A stretch of DNA of 41,438 nucleotides, taken from assembly GCA_017647225.1 (NCBI GenBank), contig JAGCLA010000056.1, positions 1 through 41,438 on the forward strand, read 5' to 3'. The translations under genes and the position numbers were made by a program. A model generated the notes under the pieces. It worked only from the letters and a program-made list of their open reading frames with translations. It searched no databases and had not been told where the DNA came from. This document shows positions 25,446 through 34,032 of the stretch, piece after piece (the stretch's first letter is position 1; each line of letters opens with the position of its first letter). This stretch comes from Bacteroidaceae bacterium. GTDB taxonomy: Bacteria; Bacteroidota; Bacteroidia; Bacteroidales; Bacteroidaceae.

Positions 25446-27272
25446 ATGAAAAAACTCTCATTTCTGTTTTTTGCGTCTTTGGTATTCCTGTTTGCATCAT
25501 GCAATAACGAGAAGGTCTATAATGCTTCCGATTTCGGAATTATACCCGGTACAGGTGCGGATATGACTAAGGAAATAGCTGATGCAATTGAATTTATTAA
25601 GGCTGAGCGTAAAGGTAAGCCTTCTGTTCTTCTGTTTGAAGCCGGCGATTATGACTTTTATCCCGATAGTGCCAATGTGCGCGAGTATTACATCAGTAAC
25701 CATGACCAGGATAATCCAAAACACGTGGCGATAGCTCTTGAGGGTGTCAAGAATCTGACATTGAGAGGCGAATCGTGTGGCAGACGTGCCAATTTCTATA
25801 TGAATGGCCGTATGTTGCCTGTGGCAATGGTCGGTTGTGAGAATTGTGTTCTCCGATTCATCGGTATTGACACCCGTTCTCCTCAGATAACACAGGTCGA
25901 AGTGCTTGAAAACGACGTAGAGGCAGGTTATATAACTTACAAGATAGCACCTTACGTGAAATACCGCATCGATAATGGCCGTCTGGTTGTTTATGGCAGT
26001 AATTGGGAGTTTAATCCATGCTGGGGCATTGCTTTTGACGGCCACACAAGACATATTGTATATACAACAAGTGATATCGGTGTGGGAACAAGCGATGTTA
26101 AGGAACTTGAACCATATCTCATTCGTGCGCCATGGCGTGATGCACGTCTTGTAAAGGGAACGGTAATTGCTATGCGCTCTTATCAGCGTCCTACTCCGGG
26201 AATCTTCGTTTCGGAGTGCAAGAATACTGAAATAACCAATTCTACTGTGTACTATGCTGAAGGAATGGGCTTATTGGCACAAATGAGTGAGAATATAACT
26301 CTTGACTATTTTGAGGTTGCTACACGTGATGACAGCCGTTACTTTACTACACAGGCCGATGCAACTCATTTTTCAGGCTGTAAGGGCTTGCTCACTTCTT
26401 GTAACGGCTTGTACGAGGGTATGATGGACGATGCAATCAATGTCCACGGTACATATCTGCGAGTTGTCCAGCGTCTTGACGACAATACTTTGGTAGGCCG
26501 TTACATGCATGGTCAGGCATACGGCTTCTATTGGGGAGGCGCGGGTGACAGTGTGCAGTTCGTACGCTCCGACGTTATGGAAATTACTGAAGGTAACCGT
26601 GTGGCTGAAATTGCTCCATACGACAAGGAACAGCTTGCCGGATGTAAAGAATTCAAGATAACATTTGAAAAACCGTTGCCGGAAGATATTGCCAATGGTA
26701 AATATGGCATTGAGAATCTCGAATGGACTCCCGAGGTTGTTTTTGCAGGCAATACCATACGTAATAACCGTGCTCGTGGTGCTTTGTTCAGTACTCCTAA
26801 AAAGACAGTGGTGGAAAATAATGTTTTTGACCATACATCGGGTACGGCAATCCTGCTCTGTGGCGATTGTAACGGTTGGTTCGAAACAGGTGCTTGCCGC
26901 GATGTGGTAATCAGAAATAACCGTTTCATAAATGCTTTGACAAGTATGTTCCAATTCACGAACGGAGTTATTTCAATATATCCCGAAATTCCTGACCTCG
27001 CATCGCAGACAAAATATTTCCATGGCGGAAATGGTCAAGGCGTGGTTATAGAGAATAACATTTTTGAAACATTCGATGCGCCACTTGTTTATGCAAAATC
27101 TCTTGACGGTCTGGTGTTCCGTAACAATAGAATTGTGCAGAACAACGATTTTAAGCCTTTCCATTGGAATCGTTACCGTTTCTTGCTTGACAAAGTGACA
27201 AATGTTACCATTGAGAACAATGATTTCGATGGTGGCTTTGATATGGAAAAGGATGTAATGTATCGTTATTGA
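25446..27272 (+). CDS. Alpha-1,3-galactosidase, glycoside hydrolase family 110
   Basis: A 608-residue lipoprotein (lipobox LFASC, Cys19) with a right-handed parallel beta-helix, seen as many NN and NNR/NNxF turns (VVENNVFDHTSG, VVIRNNRFIN, VVIENNIFETFD). Segments DATHFSGCKGLLTSCNGLYE and GMMDDAINVHGTY match GH110, with the conserved Asp pair at residues 328-329, the region of the catalytic acids in characterised family members. GH110 enzymes remove terminal alpha-1,3-galactose from blood-group B or linear alpha-Gal epitopes. The lipobox implies membrane anchoring. Its stop overlaps the next start as TGATG. Confidence 0.9.
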   Translation: MKKLSFLFFASLVFLFASCNNEKVYNASDFGIIPGTGADMTKEIADAIEFIKAERKGKPSVLLFEAGDYDFYPDSANVREYYISNHDQDNPKHVAIALEGVKNLTLRGESCGRRANFYMNGRMLPVAMVGCENCVLRFIGIDTRSPQITQVEVLENDVEAGYITYKIAPYVKYRIDNGRLVVYGSNWEFNPCWGIAFDGHTRHIVYTTSDIGVGTSDVKELEPYLIRAPWRDARLVKGTVIAMRSYQRPTPGIFVSECKNTEITNSTVYYAEGMGLLAQMSENITLDYFEVATRDDSRYFTTQADATHFSGCKGLLTSCNGLYEGMMDDAINVHGTYLRVVQRLDDNTLVGRYMHGQAYGFYWGGAGDSVQFVRSDVMEITEGNRVAEIAPYDKEQLAGCKEFKITFEKPLPEDIANGKYGIENLEWTPEVVFAGNTIRNNRARGALFSTPKKTVVENNVFDHTSGTAILLCGDCNGWFETGACRDVVIRNNRFINALTSMFQFTNGVISIYPEIPDLASQTKYFHGGNGQGVVIENNIFETFDAPLVYAKSLDGLVFRNNRIVQNNDFKPFHWNRYRFLLDKVTNVTIENNDFDGGFDMEKDVMYRY

Positions 27273-28915
27273 TGAATACTTTTCATAAATTCAAGAACAA
27301 TATCGACGGCGTGGAAATACCACGCCGTTTCAATAATCCGTTCTACTATTCGCCACATCCTCTGTGTTTTGTGGCTGCCGACGAGGTACGTGAAGCTATT
27401 GCTGGCGATGAGGCTCTTTTTGCGGAGGCATCCAAAGGTAAAATGTTCGGTGTACTTGTCGTACAGAATGTTTCGGGTGAGGTCGGGTATCTGAAAGCAT
27501 TCTCGGGGTTGCTGTTCGGGAAAAACATGTATAAAGGCTTTGTTCCCCCTGTCTATGACATGCAATCGCCAAGTGGATATTTCAAACAGGAGGAAAGCCG
27601 AATATCGGCAATCAATTCTGCCATAAAGGATATTGAGAAGAGCAAAGAATACATTTCTGCTGTTGATGCACTGAAAGCAGAAAAAGAAAAGACGGAGCAT
27701 GCCCTTGCGGAAATTTCTCTTCTGTTCAAGGCAAACAAGGAGGAACGTCGTAGAAAACGTGAATCGGGTCTGTTGTCGGCAGAGGAAGAGGTGCTTTTGA
27801 TAAAGCAGAGCCAATTTGAGAAGGCTGAACTGAAACGTGTGCGTCGTGCATGCGAGGCAGAGGTTGCCGATAAAGAGGCTCTCGTGGCGTCGTTCAAGGA
27901 ACGTATGGCAGTGTTGGGGAGCGAACGTCGTAATCGTTCTATAGCTTTGCAAAGATGGTTGTTTGAACAATTCAGAGTGCTTGATGCCAATGGCGTGAGT
28001 AAAAGTCTGCTTGACATTTTTGAAGAAAGGCTTTCGGCCTTGCCACCTGCCGGGGCAGGGGAATGTGCCGCCCCAAAACTGTTGCAGTATGCCTATGAAA
28101 ATTCGTTGAAACCGCTTGCTTTAGCCGAATTTTGGGTCGGGCAATCTCCTGTAGGTGAAGTTAGACGTGACGGTTGCTTCTATGGAGCATGCAAGAGCAA
28201 GTGTGAGCCGATACTTGGTCACATGCTTCAGGGTATTGATGTCGAAGAGTCTGCGCTTGAAAAAGGTGGCGATATAAGCTCTGTTGAAGTTGTCTATGAA
28301 GATGAACATCTTGTTGTTGTAAACAAGCCTTCGGGTGTTCTTTCGGTGCCGGGTGTGGTCGGTGGAATGTCGGTGCAGCAGTGGTTGCGTGAAGAGTATC
28401 TGCATAGCAACGACCTTTTTGTAGTGCATCGTCTTGATATGGCAACATCGGGGTTGCTGGTGGCTGCAAAATCTGTGGAAATGTATAAGTTGCTGCAAAA
28501 ACAATTTGCTGAGCGTTTGGTAAAAAAAACTTACAAAGCGGTGCTTGGCGGTGTTCCAAACAACTGTGAAGGAGTTGTTGAACTGCCATTGGCATCTGAC
28601 TATGAAAATCGTCCTCGCCAAAAGGTCGATTACGAGAACGGGAAGCCGGCTGTTACTTATTATAAAGTGCTTGAAAAAATATCATATAAGGGAAAACAAT
28701 GCGCTTTGGTCTGTTTTAATCCTGTTACGGGGCGCACACATCAGTTGCGAGTTCATGCGGCAAGTAACAAAGGGCTGGATTGTCCCATTGTTGGAGATGT
28801 CCTTTATGGTGTTGCCGATGAAAGGCTTATGCTGCATGCCGCATCAATACAATTTGAACATCCTGTAAGTGGAAAAAATGTTACAATAACTTGCGAACCC
28901 ACATTCTTTGTATAA
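27272..28915 (+). CDS. RluA-family RNA pseudouridine synthase with long N-terminal extension
   Basis: A 547-residue cytoplasmic enzyme. The C-terminal 220 residues hold the RluA fold: VVNKPSGVLSVPG, the catalytic motif HRLDMATSGLL (Asp389), and PVTGRTHQLRVHAASNKG. The first 280 residues are an extra region with a charged coiled coil (about residues 105-220) seen in a subgroup of long RluA proteins in several phyla. The ATG at 27272 shares bases with the stop of the GH110 gene, so translation is probably coupled. A TTG one codon upstream is less likely. The RNA target is unknown. Confidence 0.9.
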   Translation: MNTFHKFKNNIDGVEIPRRFNNPFYYSPHPLCFVAADEVREAIAGDEALFAEASKGKMFGVLVVQNVSGEVGYLKAFSGLLFGKNMYKGFVPPVYDMQSPSGYFKQEESRISAINSAIKDIEKSKEYISAVDALKAEKEKTEHALAEISLLFKANKEERRRKRESGLLSAEEEVLLIKQSQFEKAELKRVRRACEAEVADKEALVASFKERMAVLGSERRNRSIALQRWLFEQFRVLDANGVSKSLLDIFEERLSALPPAGAGECAAPKLLQYAYENSLKPLALAEFWVGQSPVGEVRRDGCFYGACKSKCEPILGHMLQGIDVEESALEKGGDISSVEVVYEDEHLVVVNKPSGVLSVPGVVGGMSVQQWLREEYLHSNDLFVVHRLDMATSGLLVAAKSVEMYKLLQKQFAERLVKKTYKAVLGGVPNNCEGVVELPLASDYENRPRQKVDYENGKPAVTYYKVLEKISYKGKQCALVCFNPVTGRTHQLRVHAASNKGLDCPIVGDVLYGVADERLMLHAASIQFEHPVSGKNVTITCEPTFFV

Positions 28916-29025: not shown

Positions 29026-32000
29026 ATGAAGTTAAAAGTTCCTTTTCTGTTCATGCTTTTTGTCTTGATGCTTGGATTTACTGCCAAGGCACAAGATTAC
29101 AAAGTGGTTAATGGTGCGAATGTGAATGTGACCCACGAAACCCACTATCCTAAGTCGGTTGGTGTAGTCGGTACACAAACTCCGCAACAATTGCTCGAAA
29201 ATATAGCAACTGCACCTCGCTGTGCTGCCTATTTTGATAAGACTGCAACTGTCTTTGAGGTAAAGAGCGGTGAAACAGTGACTCCGATTATTACCATAAA
29301 CGGCAAATATATGCATGGTTATGTTTATGTCGATTGGAACAATAATAAACAGTTCGATGTAAATATTTCCGGTGACGGTCCTTTCGTTAAGGAAGAGGGA
29401 AATGAACTTATGTGCTGGTCGCTATATGGTAAGAATACCGATGGCGATACAGGTTGGAATAGCGCAGGTATATACCAGAGCAACGGCGATGTTCTTGCTC
29501 CGGGCTCATTCCGTGTGCCCGATGGTCTTGAGAATGGTTCAACCTACCGTATGCGTTTTGCTGTGATGTGGAACTGCATCGACCCTTCCGGTAATTATGA
29601 CAAATTCTTAAGCGATGGTGCTTCAATAATAGATGTTACGCTGAAAATCAACGGCGTGGCTGATGATGTGGTCGAAGGTGGTTATCCTATCGACGATTAT
29701 GAGGAGCCACGTGTCGGTACCACTCCTGATGCTGCGGCTTGGAATGCATTGCCCGACGGCTTGAATGTTACATGGGCTTCGCGTGACGCACATTATAAAC
29801 TACATGAGGTGCCGGAGGTAGCTCAAAAGAATGTCGCTACAATACATGTTTGGAAGGGCGAGCGTGCAAATGTTCAGGCTGTGCTGTTCAGCAAAACAGA
29901 CCAAGGTATAATGTCTGTCCATATGACAGAGTGGAAGAAAAATGGTTCGGCAACAGGTGTGAATGGCGGTGATGCCCGTTTTGTCAACTATGTTATTACC
30001 GATGATTATGTAGCATGTGGAAATCATCCTATGGATTTACCTCAATGGCTTGTTGCCGACGTTATTGATCAGGATAAACCTCATGCAGTTCCTGCAATGG
30101 AGACACGTCCTGTTTGGTGCACATTGGAGATTCCTCGCGATATCGAGGCCGGCGAATATGTTACAGAACTCGAAGTGGTTGATGAAAATGACAATGTCGT
30201 AAAGAGCTTGAAACTGAATATCGTTGTTGATTCTCACTCTTTGCCAACTGTGGCAAATCAGAAATTCCATCTCGATTTCTGGCAGCAGCCTTATGCTGTA
30301 AGCCGTTATTATGGTGTGGAGCGTTGGAGCGACGAACACTTGGAGGCTTTGCGTCCATATCTGCAGGCTCTTGGCCGTGCCGGTCAGCGTGTTGTAAGTG
30401 CTATTCTTTTCTATGAGCCATGGGGTGAACAGACACACGACCTCTTTGACCCGATGGTACAGACAACAAAGAAAAGTGACGGCACTTGGGCTTATGACTA
30501 TACAATTTTCGACAAATATGTTGAGCTTTGTGCTGAATATGGTATCAACAAGCAGATTAACTGCTTCAGTATGTTGCCTTGGGATATGAGTTTCCGCTAT
30601 TTTGATGAGGCTTCAAACAGCTACAAGAATCTCACTACAACATATTCATCAACAGAATATCGCGACCTTTGGACAAACTTCCTTACAGCCTTTAAGGCTC
30701 ACTTGCAGCAGAAAGGCTGGTTCGAGAAGACTGTCATTGCTGTAGATGAGCGAGGCGAGGCAGCAATGCTCAAGGCTCATGAGATAGCCAATGCCCTTGG
30801 TTTCAAGATGGCTCTTGCCGGTAACTACCATGGTTCGCTCTGCGATATCCTGCACGACAAGTGTGTGCAGCTTGGCCAGGAACATCTCTTTACAGCGGCA
30901 CAGCTTGCCGACCGCAAGTCGAAGAATCGTATAACAACCTTCTATACAAGTTGTGCAAACAGCGAACCGAATATCTATTCCAATTCATATCCAGCTGAAG
31001 CTGCCTATTTGCCAATATATGCAGCAAAGATGAACCTCGACGGTTATCTGCATTGGGCATGGATGAACTGGGACGAGCATCCTCTTACCGACAGCCGTTT
31101 CCGTAAGTTCGGCTCGGGCGATACATATTGCTATTATCCCGGCAACCGCTCAAGCGTGCGTTTCGAGCGTCTTATCGAAGGAATCCACCAGTATGAGAAA
31201 ATACAGATTCTCAAGGAGGAGTATAAGGACAATGCTGAAAAACTTGCCCAGTTGAATGCGTTGCTTGGACGTTTTACCGGCTCTGTGGCAGGCGAGGATT
31301 GTGCTCGTATGGTAAATGATATCGAGGATTTCCTTAACGGTCTTGAAGTCGAGATACCTGTGGCAAAGGATGTCGAAACCGGTTATTATCACATAGTAAG
31401 TAAAGCTACAAGCCGTGCAGAACATCTTTATAATAATGCATTGTTAAGTGCCAACAGTATGAAGTTTACCTTGCAGTCAAATTCTATGGTAAATACCAAT
31501 AACGGTATTTGGCTTGTAACAGTAAAAGATAATGGTAAGCTTGCTATAAAGAACGGCGACGGTCAGCCTCTTGTTGCCGGAGCAAACTGGGGAAGTTCTG
31601 TCGTGGGTTCATACACAGAACTTACTGTTGATGGTACTACCGATGTTGGTGAGTTTCGTTATTACTATTTCAATGAGGCGCTGAACTGTACTAACGGAAG
31701 TGCTAACTATAAGATTGGAGGTGCGGATTTTGTTACTACGTGGTCTGACGGTGGCAGCGCTGATGACAATCAATGGCGTTTTGAGCCTGTGGATATGGAG
31801 GGTATGAGCGTTTACGAAATTGTTGTCGAAGGCAATTCCGAGGCTTATGTAAAATATAATAACGGACTTTCAACAGACTATGCTTTCAATGGTGGATTCT
31901 TTATTGTAGATACTGATATTGACAAATCAAAATTGACTGTTGGCGTTGTCGGTAATGTGGTGAAGAGTGCCGATGTTAAAGTTGATGGCAAAACCATCAA

Positions 32001-34032
32001 GGTGAGCAATGTCAAAACTCTTGAAACTCCTGTAAAACAGGATTTGTATAATACAAGTAAGGGTGACGGTGTAATTCCCCCTTATCGTATTCCCGGTATA
32101 ACCACAGCGAGCAATGGTCGCTTGATTACAGCTGCCGCACGTCTTGTCTGCGGTACTGACCCCGGATATGGTCAGGTCGATGTGGTATGCCGCACAAGTG
32201 ACAACCATGGTAAGACATGGAGTGATATGATAGATGTTGCGGTAGGTACAGGTCGTACATCGGCTACCGTAAACTATTTCGACACCGCTTTCGGTGACCC
32301 TGCCATTGTTGCCGACCGTACAAGCGACGAGGTACTTATAATAGCTGTTGCCGGTTGTACAGTATATGGTAATGGTAATACCACACGCCAGAATCCTAAT
32401 ATGATTGCTACGATATTGAGTAAAGATAATGGCGAGACATGGGAAGAGCCTATAAATGTAACTGAAGATATATACAGCCTCTTCGATGCAGGCAACCCCA
32501 TTCAGGCTGCATTCGTTGGTGGCGGTAAAATCTTTCAGAGCCGTATTGTAAAGAAGGATAAGTATTACCGCTTGTATGCAGCAATGTGTGCGCGTCCTAA
32601 CGGTAACCGCGTTATCTATTCCGATGACTTTGGCCGTACATGGCATGCACTTGGCGGTGCTTCTGCTCTTCCTGCTCCGGGAGGAGATGAACCGAAGTGT
32701 GAGGAACTCCCCGACGGTCGTGTAATACTTTCAAGTCGTGTTGGTGGTGGACGTATCTATAATATATATACATACAGCAATATCCTTACAGCTGAAGGTA
32801 AGTGGGATTCTTCCGTAAAGAGTACATTTGCAGGCTCGGGATTGACTCCCGGTGGAAACTCTACCAATGGCGAGATTCTTGTTGTTCCCGTTCAACGAAA
32901 TAGCGACAAGAAAGAAATGTACCTTGCACTACAGTCTTTGCCTACAGGTGGCGGCCGTACAAATGTGGGTATTTTCTATAAGGAGTTGACCGATTTTACC
33001 GATCTCAACAGCGTTGCGAATTTTGCTGGTGATTGGAACGGATTCTTTCAGGTAAGCAACACCTCATCGGCTTATAGCTCAATGGACTTGCAGGCTGATA
33101 ACCGCATCGGTTTTATATACGAGGAAACATTGACAGGCTTTGGTAAACGTGATAACCCTGTTTCTACAAGTTTCCCCACAGGCTCCGGACAGCATAATTT
33201 CGACGGTTTCGACAATATATATGTAGCATACGAATTGGAGTATATTACAAATGGCGCATACAGCGTCAAGCGTGATGTTGACCAGCGTGCATTCGTTCGT
33301 GACTATTTCAATGCTTGGGCTGATGATGTGGATATGTCTTCAAAAGACAAGAAAGCTCTGTCAAAGGCTCTTAATGCTTTGAGCGAGAAACCGACACCTG
33401 CTGAACTTGATGCCGTTTATGCTGTTTTTGCAGGGGTTAAGCCTGCTGACAAGTGGGACGGAAAAATCCTTACTTTTACCAATGTCCAGCAGTCGGGCGC
33501 AGAGCGTGTATTGTATGTAAATGATGATAATGTTCTTGATTTGACAACCTCTTCTGCCGAGGAGATGGGTGAAGCTGCAAAGTTTCTATGTACTAAGGAG
33601 GAAAGCGGCAACTACAGTTTTTTTAATGAGAAGAGCCGACTCTATATGATTTGGCGTGCCGGTAAAAGTTATGGCTATAATAACAACAGTGGAACTCTTG
33701 CTGAATATAATGCCACATATTGCGACTGGAGCATAAATCAGGGCTCTGTTTCCGACATGTATTACATCGTGAGCAAAAGAGCAAATGGCGCTGACGGTTC
33801 GTTGATTGTTATGGCTTCGGGTGTTTTTGACTCTTGGGACGGCTCGGAGGGATATAGTAATAATTACAGCAATCTCTTTCGTATAGATGCAGTTGATGTG
33901 GAAACCGGAATATGCGAGGTGAAAGGGGAAAATGCGACGATAAATGGCATATATGACTTGCAAGGCCGAAAAGTGGAAATTGTAACTCATGGACTTTACA
34001 TAGTCAACGGTAAAAAGGTTTTTATAAAGTAA
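29026..34032 (+). CDS. Multidomain secreted glycosidase: GH123-like (DUF4091) plus GH33 sialidase
   Basis: A 1,668-residue secreted protein. After a signal peptide (to about residue 23) come: a GEVED-like domain (about 30-210; GYVYVDWNNNKQFD); a DUF4091/GH123-like module (about 230-790) with HLDFWQQPYAVSRYYG near 415 and the candidate catalytic pair Asp574-Glu575 in AVDERG; a ricin-like segment (about 800-930); a BNR-associated N domain; a GH33 sialidase (about 1003-1410) with RIP Arg1021, Asp-boxes at 1058, 1132 and 1199, Glu1222, Arg1238, Arg1311 and Tyr1350; another carbohydrate-binding-like segment; and a tail (GIYDLQGRKV...GLYIVNGKKV) resembling type IX secretion signals. It would cut sialic acid and perhaps beta-GalNAc from host glycans. 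Confidence 0.87.
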   Translation: MKLKVPFLFMLFVLMLGFTAKAQDYKVVNGANVNVTHETHYPKSVGVVGTQTPQQLLENIATAPRCAAYFDKTATVFEVKSGETVTPIITINGKYMHGYVYVDWNNNKQFDVNISGDGPFVKEEGNELMCWSLYGKNTDGDTGWNSAGIYQSNGDVLAPGSFRVPDGLENGSTYRMRFAVMWNCIDPSGNYDKFLSDGASIIDVTLKINGVADDVVEGGYPIDDYEEPRVGTTPDAAAWNALPDGLNVTWASRDAHYKLHEVPEVAQKNVATIHVWKGERANVQAVLFSKTDQGIMSVHMTEWKKNGSATGVNGGDARFVNYVITDDYVACGNHPMDLPQWLVADVIDQDKPHAVPAMETRPVWCTLEIPRDIEAGEYVTELEVVDENDNVVKSLKLNIVVDSHSLPTVANQKFHLDFWQQPYAVSRYYGVERWSDEHLEALRPYLQALGRAGQRVVSAILFYEPWGEQTHDLFDPMVQTTKKSDGTWAYDYTIFDKYVELCAEYGINKQINCFSMLPWDMSFRYFDEASNSYKNLTTTYSSTEYRDLWTNFLTAFKAHLQQKGWFEKTVIAVDERGEAAMLKAHEIANALGFKMALAGNYHGSLCDILHDKCVQLGQEHLFTAAQLADRKSKNRITTFYTSCANSEPNIYSNSYPAEAAYLPIYAAKMNLDGYLHWAWMNWDEHPLTDSRFRKFGSGDTYCYYPGNRSSVRFERLIEGIHQYEKIQILKEEYKDNAEKLAQLNALLGRFTGSVAGEDCARMVNDIEDFLNGLEVEIPVAKDVETGYYHIVSKATSRAEHLYNNALLSANSMKFTLQSNSMVNTNNGIWLVTVKDNGKLAIKNGDGQPLVAGANWGSSVVGSYTELTVDGTTDVGEFRYYYFNEALNCTNGSANYKIGGADFVTTWSDGGSADDNQWRFEPVDMEGMSVYEIVVEGNSEAYVKYNNGLSTDYAFNGGFFIVDTDIDKSKLTVGVVGNVVKSADVKVDGKTIKVSNVKTLETPVKQDLYNTSKGDGVIPPYRIPGITTASNGRLITAAARLVCGTDPGYGQVDVVCRTSDNHGKTWSDMIDVAVGTGRTSATVNYFDTAFGDPAIVADRTSDEVLIIAVAGCTVYGNGNTTRQNPNMIATILSKDNGETWEEPINVTEDIYSLFDAGNPIQAAFVGGGKIFQSRIVKKDKYYRLYAAMCARPNGNRVIYSDDFGRTWHALGGASALPAPGGDEPKCEELPDGRVILSSRVGGGRIYNIYTYSNILTAEGKWDSSVKSTFAGSGLTPGGNSTNGEILVVPVQRNSDKKEMYLALQSLPTGGGRTNVGIFYKELTDFTDLNSVANFAGDWNGFFQVSNTSSAYSSMDLQADNRIGFIYEETLTGFGKRDNPVSTSFPTGSGQHNFDGFDNIYVAYELEYITNGAYSVKRDVDQRAFVRDYFNAWADDVDMSSKDKKALSKALNALSEKPTPAELDAVYAVFAGVKPADKWDGKILTFTNVQQSGAERVLYVNDDNVLDLTTSSAEEMGEAAKFLCTKEESGNYSFFNEKSRLYMIWRAGKSYGYNNNSGTLAEYNATYCDWSINQGSVSDMYYIVSKRANGADGSLIVMASGVFDSWDGSEGYSNNYSNLFRIDAVDVETGICEVKGENATINGIYDLQGRKVEIVTHGLYIVNGKKVFIK

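What the first reader, a model, noticed from the sequence alone, without database searches (positions are those of the whole stretch)
29026..34032. Single polypeptide joining GH123-like and GH33 sialidase modules
One 1,668-residue secreted protein carries a DUF4091/GH123-like domain with a candidate Asp574-Glu575 pair and a complete GH33 sialidase (Arg triad, Tyr1350, three Asp-boxes), with GEVED and ricin-like segments around them. If both modules are active, it would remove sialic acid and beta-GalNAc from one glycan, for example a ganglioside or Sda-type epitope. I do not know of a characterised enzyme with this pairing.
Basis: partly seen in the sequence, partly recalled or inferred. Interest (0 to 1): 0.7.

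Follow-up and report, generated by a model that had tools for sequence, protein, structure and literature searches.

The report
Sialidase fused to beta-GalNAc-cutting enzyme
A gut bacterium of the Bacteroidales makes one large secreted protein with two sugar-cutting enzymes, probably to strip sialic acid and then GalNAc from the same host sugar branch; the same pairing was published recently in Bifidobacterium, and here it appears to have arisen more than once in herbivore gut bacteria.

The parts
29026..34032 (+). CDS, 1,668 aa, GEVED - GH123 - linker - GH33 - C-terminal region - tail
29026..29091 (+). Putative signal peptide (aa 1-22, ...TAKA|QD)
   Evidence: by eye on the translation; no predictor run
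29320..29601 (+). GEVED domain (aa 99-192)
   Evidence: PF20009 E 1.5e-5
29773..30180 (+). GH123 N-terminal domain (aa 250-385)
   Evidence: PF22680 E 3.7e-31
30280..31212 (+). GH123 catalytic domain (aa 419-729)
30745..30750 (+). Asp574-Glu575 codons, GH123 catalytic pair
   Evidence: aligned with BvGH123 and C. perfringens GH123; invariant in 20 of 20
31351..32025 (+). Inter-catalytic region (aa 776-1000), possibly lectin-like
   Evidence: weak: RicinB_lectin_2 in 6 of 26 sequences, best E 0.012
32026..33141 (+). GH33 sialidase domain, TDE0471 type (aa 1001-1372)
33073..33075 (+). Tyr1350, GH33 nucleophile
   Evidence: aligned with Y463 of TDE0471; invariant in 20 of 20
33151..33900 (+). C-terminal region (aa 1376-1625), unassigned
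   Evidence: no convincing PDB profile match
33886..34029 (+). C-terminal tail (about aa 1621-1668), possibly a type IX secretion sorting tail
   Evidence: inferred: a short tail motif is found in 20 of 20 fusions, 20 of 28 other complete sialidase ORFs of the genus and 7 of 77 other ORFs there; SprA is in the genome; no NCBIfam sorting-domain hit
25446..27272 (+). GH110-type alpha-galactosidase (GLAA-B domains), near neighbour on the same strand
   Evidence: PF23763, PF23764; within about 6 kb of the fusion in 7 of 15 flank loci
27269..28915 (+). RNA pseudouridine synthase, between GH110 and the fusion
   Evidence: PF00849

Best explanation
A secreted two-enzyme protein that takes apart a sialylated beta-GalNAc branch in sequence. 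The GH33 module (Tyr1350 nucleophile assisted by Glu1222, Asp1045 acid/base, Arg1021/1238/1311 binding the carboxylate) first removes the sialic acid. That unblocks the neighbouring beta-linked GalNAc, which the GH123 module (Asp574-Glu575, substrate-assisted) then removes. The most likely targets are Sda-type (GalNAcb1-4[Neu5Aca2-3]Gal) caps on colonic mucin, or the same trisaccharide on GM2. The freed sialic acid can probably be eaten: the genome has a Neu5Ac lyase-like gene, an epimerase and a mutarotase-symporter in a row. Shown here: anatomy, active-site residues, fold match, conservation, fusion history. Inferred: activity, order of cuts, substrate, secretion route.
For: Both modules match solved enzymes in sequence and in the predicted fold. 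Eight catalytic residues are invariant in 20 of 20 full-length genus proteins aligned, and the two catalytic modules are the best conserved parts (mean pairwise identity 81% and 86%, against 51-71% elsewhere). SiaBb3, with the same two families in the same order, does this reaction, and its sialidase-dead form does not act on GM2 (PMC12856340). A GH123 identical to a Bacteroides plebeius protein, Uhgb_GH123, cleaves asialo-GM2 but not GM2 (PMC7531118 section 9). The GH33 Glu-to-Tyr spacing is 128 residues in both proteins (E1222/Y1350 here; E1430/Y1558 as printed for SiaBb3). The fused architecture recurs: 46 of 77 named loci, and more than one origin is supported by two module trees. The sister genes of both modules are neighbours in one genome, G392. 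The host genome carries a likely Neu5Ac catabolic cluster (most of its curated-family scores are below the cut-offs).
Against: No activity data for this protein. SiaBb3's sequence could not be obtained, so homology and subsite similarity to it are untested. Unfused GH123 genes are common: of the 31 unfused loci only 4 have a GH33 ORF in the stretch held (up to 5 kb each side, several cut by contig ends), and 2 of those look like broken fusions. Some members of the main clade carry GH123 without GH33 (G319, G841, G800; more). The gap between the modules varies from 12 to 235 residues, so no fixed geometry between the two sites is conserved. Inter-domain placement in the model is not reliable (pTM 0.52). 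Sda expression in ruminant hindgut mucin was not looked up.
Confidence: 0.6

Rival explanations
1. The pair acts on linear sialyl-LacdiNAc (Neu5Aca2-6GalNAcb1-4GlcNAc): GH33 uncaps the GalNAc itself, then GH123 removes it. Same sequential logic, different host glycan.
For: SiaBb3's sialidase prefers 6'-sialyllactose 20-fold over 3' (PMC12856340). Uhgb_GH123 showed no significant preference between b1-4 and b1-3 GalNAc. That LacdiNAc is frequent on ruminant glycoproteins is recalled, not looked up.
Against: No GH123 result on LacdiNAc was seen in the passages read; SiaBb3 targets Sda in mucin.
Confidence: 0.2
2. The two enzymes act on different glycans; fusion only gives shared secretion and anchoring, as one of several multi-enzyme sialidase proteins in this genus.
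For: The same genus fuses this sialidase type to GH20 and to GH95. The gap between the modules varies from 12 to 235 residues. Solo GH123 relatives are common.
Against: More than one fusion of exactly this pair, in both orders, and the block of GH123 by sialic acid in two characterised enzymes.
Confidence: 0.15
3. One module has lost catalysis and serves as a binding domain.
For: None found.
Against: All eight catalytic residues present and invariant in 20 of 20; the catalytic modules are the most conserved parts.
Confidence: 0.05

Closest known systems
SiaBb3 of Bifidobacterium bifidum (GH123+GH33, 1,753 aa; PMC12856340)
   Same: Same two GH families in one polypeptide, same order, similar size, few Asp boxes, 128-residue spacing of the catalytic Glu and Tyr in GH33.
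   Different: Another phylum (Actinomycetota); sortase-anchored, against a putative type IX tail here; GEVED and other accessory regions here.
BvGH123 (PDB 5l7r/5l7u/5l7v) and Uhgb_GH123, Bacteroidales beta-N-acetylgalactosaminidases
   Same: GH123 family and, for BvGH123, fold and Asp-Glu pair; 35% identity in the structural alignment with BvGH123.
   Different: Neither is reported with a sialidase module in what was read.
Treponema denticola TDE0471 / Td-NanH sialidase (PDB 10qf)
   Different: TDE0471 has a small N-terminal domain and no GH123 module.
Clostridium perfringens GH123 (PDB 5fqe)
   Different: More distant; the solved chain holds no sialidase module.

Membership tests
GH123 | GH123 N-terminal and catalytic domains | tested here: met
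GH123 | Asp-Glu catalytic pair | tested here: met
   D574-E575 aligned with 5l7r and 5fqe; 20 of 20 invariant
GH123 | beta-N-acetylgalactosaminidase activity | not testable with these tools
   needs the purified protein
GH33 | Six-bladed propeller sialidase fold | tested here: met
GH33 | Arg triad, Asp acid/base, Glu-Tyr nucleophile pair | tested here: met
GH33 | Several Asp boxes | tested here: met
   two canonical and one degenerate; the preprint gives three for TDE0471 and four or five as typical
NeuramTDE0471 (NF052328 equivalog) | Score over the curated cut-off | tested here: not met
   268 bits against 900, so a relative of that type, not that equivalog
SiaBb3-type bifunctional enzyme | GH123 then GH33 in one polypeptide | tested here: met
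SiaBb3-type bifunctional enzyme | Common descent of the fusion | not tested
   SiaBb3 sequence not obtained here
SiaBb3-type bifunctional enzyme | Neu5Ac then GalNAc release from Sda/GM2 | not testable with these tools
   needs enzyme assays
Type IX secretion cargo | Recognised C-terminal sorting domain | tested here: not met
   no sorting-domain hit with NCBIfam at E<=1; the tail motif is a pattern of mine
Type IX secretion cargo | Type IX machinery in the genome | tested here: met
   SprA 2,648.8 bits; other components not searched

The most novel reading that the evidence does not exclude
GH33-GH123 coupling has been invented at least three times in Bacteroidales of the herbivore gut (both domain orders, two sialidase types), besides the Bifidobacterium case, because sialic acid blocks GH123. 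The main version arose from a neighbouring GH33/GH123 gene pair and spread through at least three genera in two families. It is one of a set of sialidase-led multi-enzyme proteins (GH33 with GH123, GH20 or GH95) with which these bacteria strip host glycan caps.
Probability: 0.5. Interest if true: 0.6.

Novelty: new member of a known kind. Interest (0 to 1): 0.45.

Why it matters
The only characterised enzyme of this kind that my paper searches turned up is SiaBb3, called 'unique' in its title. A second, widespread and repeatedly formed set in another phylum would suggest that Sda-type caps (or a similar sialylated beta-GalNAc branch) are a regular food for gut bacteria of herbivores. It would give many natural designs (two orders, gaps of 12 to 235 residues, two sialidase types) for testing whether joining the two enzymes speeds the double cut. 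It also offers candidate reagents for removing the Sda antigen.

Tried and rejected
Rejected: inactive DUF4091 module (catalytic pair present and fold matched). Rejected: chance or chimeric ORF (20 of 43 same-genus genomes have a full-length match; shared gene neighbourhood in many). Rejected: one origin for the main clade and the reversed G457 protein (AU tests; the group was defined by architecture but tested after the tree was seen). No such test was run for the G068 protein.

Led nowhere: viral contigs with P0001 (no relatives); plasmids (16 records, none covering 80% of the query); PDB profiles of the linker and C-terminal regions (no convincing hit); NanE PF04131 in the own genome (no match; an AGE-type epimerase is there instead). 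The phylum sample gave 20 of 395 genomes with GH123, and no open frame over 726 aa outside the order. The hindgut bias of the fused loci (31 of 33) is no control-beating result: unfused loci with a site label show 9 of 11. No fold is claimed for aa 1376-1668, and none for aa 776-1000, which the structure search barely tested: a second structure job never found a place in the queue.

Full report

SURROUNDINGS. Upstream on the same strand lie a GH110-type alpha-galactosidase (25446-27272) and a pseudouridine synthase; downstream, on the other strand, lie thiamine pyrophosphokinase, PnuC and a TonB receptor. I took flanks from 15 relatives in the genus: GH110 lies within about 6 kb of the fusion in 7; 3 show only some of the other neighbours; 5 show none of them, one of these on a contig that starts just before the gene. 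So the position is often, not always, the same. The genome (2.13 Mb, 56 contigs, 88% complete) has a second, separate GH123 gene and two tandem TDE0471-type sialidases. It also has SprA of the type IX secretion system and a row of Neu5Ac lyase-like, AGE-type epimerase and mutarotase-symporter genes. In that row only the symporter part scores over a curated cut-off, so the pathway is likely rather than shown. A short tail motif ends 20 of 20 fusions, 20 of 28 other complete sialidase ORFs in the loci compared, and 7 of 77 other ORFs of 300 aa or more there.

CONSERVATION. Of 43 same-genus genomes, 20 have a full-length match to the whole protein, one of these with an in-frame stop; others have pieces, several cut by contig ends, and one is split in two ORFs. 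From the 23 loci L003-L025 I aligned 20 full-length proteins (the window's own and 19 others). I dropped L019 (ends at its stop), L024 (contig end) and L025 (a longer variant, cut in that locus). D574, E575, R1021, D1045, E1222, R1238, R1311 and Y1350 are invariant in 20 of 20, and the two catalytic modules are the most conserved parts.

OTHER FUSIONS. The genome-contig scan kept its best 80 of 96 confirmed matches, 77 distinct loci. Of these, 46 have both modules in one ORF (two of them, L147 and L155, come from one MAG) and 31 do not. Four of the 31 have a GH33 ORF in the stretch held: L168 and L181 (look like broken fusions), L194 and L195 (separate genes). All 46 fused loci are assigned to Bacteroidales. 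By record title 33 of the 46 name a ruminant gut site: 31 cecum, colon or rectum, and 2 rumen. But 9 of 11 unfused loci with a site label are hindgut too, so the site is a habitat of the group, not a mark of the fusion. The scan's patterns favour close relatives. Module trees of selected rows, 52 GH123 and 55 GH33, place 24 fusions in one clade each; the GH123 clade also holds three proteins without GH33. In both trees the sister is G392, whose GH33 and GH123 are neighbouring genes on one strand (support 99/94 and 99/96). The reversed-order protein of G457 (GH33 then GH123, 974 aa) falls elsewhere in both trees (AU p 5.5e-5 and 3.7e-6). The G068 protein has a different sialidase type (26% identity) and also falls elsewhere; that was not put to an AU test. 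The tool warned that long branches meet in the GH33 tree, naming G068 and G457, and each is a single MAG. A larger quick tree gives the same picture, with support 92 (GH123) and 97 (GH33) for the G392 sister position, and with more GH123-only proteins nested among the fusions.

MECHANISM. SiaBb3 of B. bifidum (PMC12856340; parts 1 to 3 of 6 read) has GH123 then GH33 and turns GM2 into lactosylceramide. Its sialidase-dead form does not act on GM2, and the enzyme acts on Sda in mucin. Uhgb_GH123 cleaves asialo-GM2 but not GM2 (PMC7531118, section 9 read). Sialic acid thus blocks GH123 in two characterised enzymes, which is a simple reason for joining it to a sialidase. Against this being the only way, Akkermansia has a GH20 that accepts the sialylated branch (PMC11790493, passages). 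I therefore propose GH33 first, GH123 second, on Sda/GM2-type branches (0.6). Sialyl-LacdiNAc is the main rival.

NOVELTY. Searches of the paper library for GH123 with GH33 and related terms, SiaBb3, Sda, GH33 with GH20 and DUF4091 with sialidase showed no other GH123-GH33 enzyme in the listings; apart from the passages and sections named above I saw only those listings, some of them capped at 20 papers, and the library holds open-licence papers only. So the window protein is a new member of a known kind. What appears new is its spread in Bacteroidales and the repeated fusion.

Noticed in passing
L046:2834-8491, L054:862-5862, L222:5683-10656, L050:1775-7930, L048, L221 (same genus): GH20-type beta-hexosaminidase fused to a TDE0471-type sialidase in one protein of about 1,660-2,220 aa (L048 and L221 cut by the stretch end). 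GH20 by Pfam in L046 and L050, by similarity to L046 in the others; sialidase by a profile built here.
   Followed up: partly
L041:3138-11708 and L042:3346-12108 (G036, G015): Sialidase (profile built here) fused to a GH95 fucosidase (Pfam) in proteins of 2,856 and 2,920 aa.
   Followed up: partly
L044:3587-7492 (G056): GH89-type (NAGLU) domains fused to GH123 in another genus, 1,301 aa.
   Followed up: no
L079:2491-7999 / L195 (G392): Separate neighbouring GH33 and GH123 genes that are sister to the fused modules in both trees: a likely pre-fusion state or a fission.
   Followed up: yes
L073 (G319), L108 (G841): Close relatives with GH123 that lack the GH33 module; L073 (GEVED-GH123-linker) ends in its own C-terminal tail: probable module loss.
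   Followed up: partly
L220:6192-10916 (own genome, contig C20): Neu5Ac lyase-like, AGE epimerase and mutarotase-symporter genes in a row.
   Followed up: yes
window 25446-27272: GH110-type alpha-galactosidase two genes upstream of the fusion; together the locus could strip alpha-Gal and sialyl/GalNAc caps (inference).
   Followed up: partly
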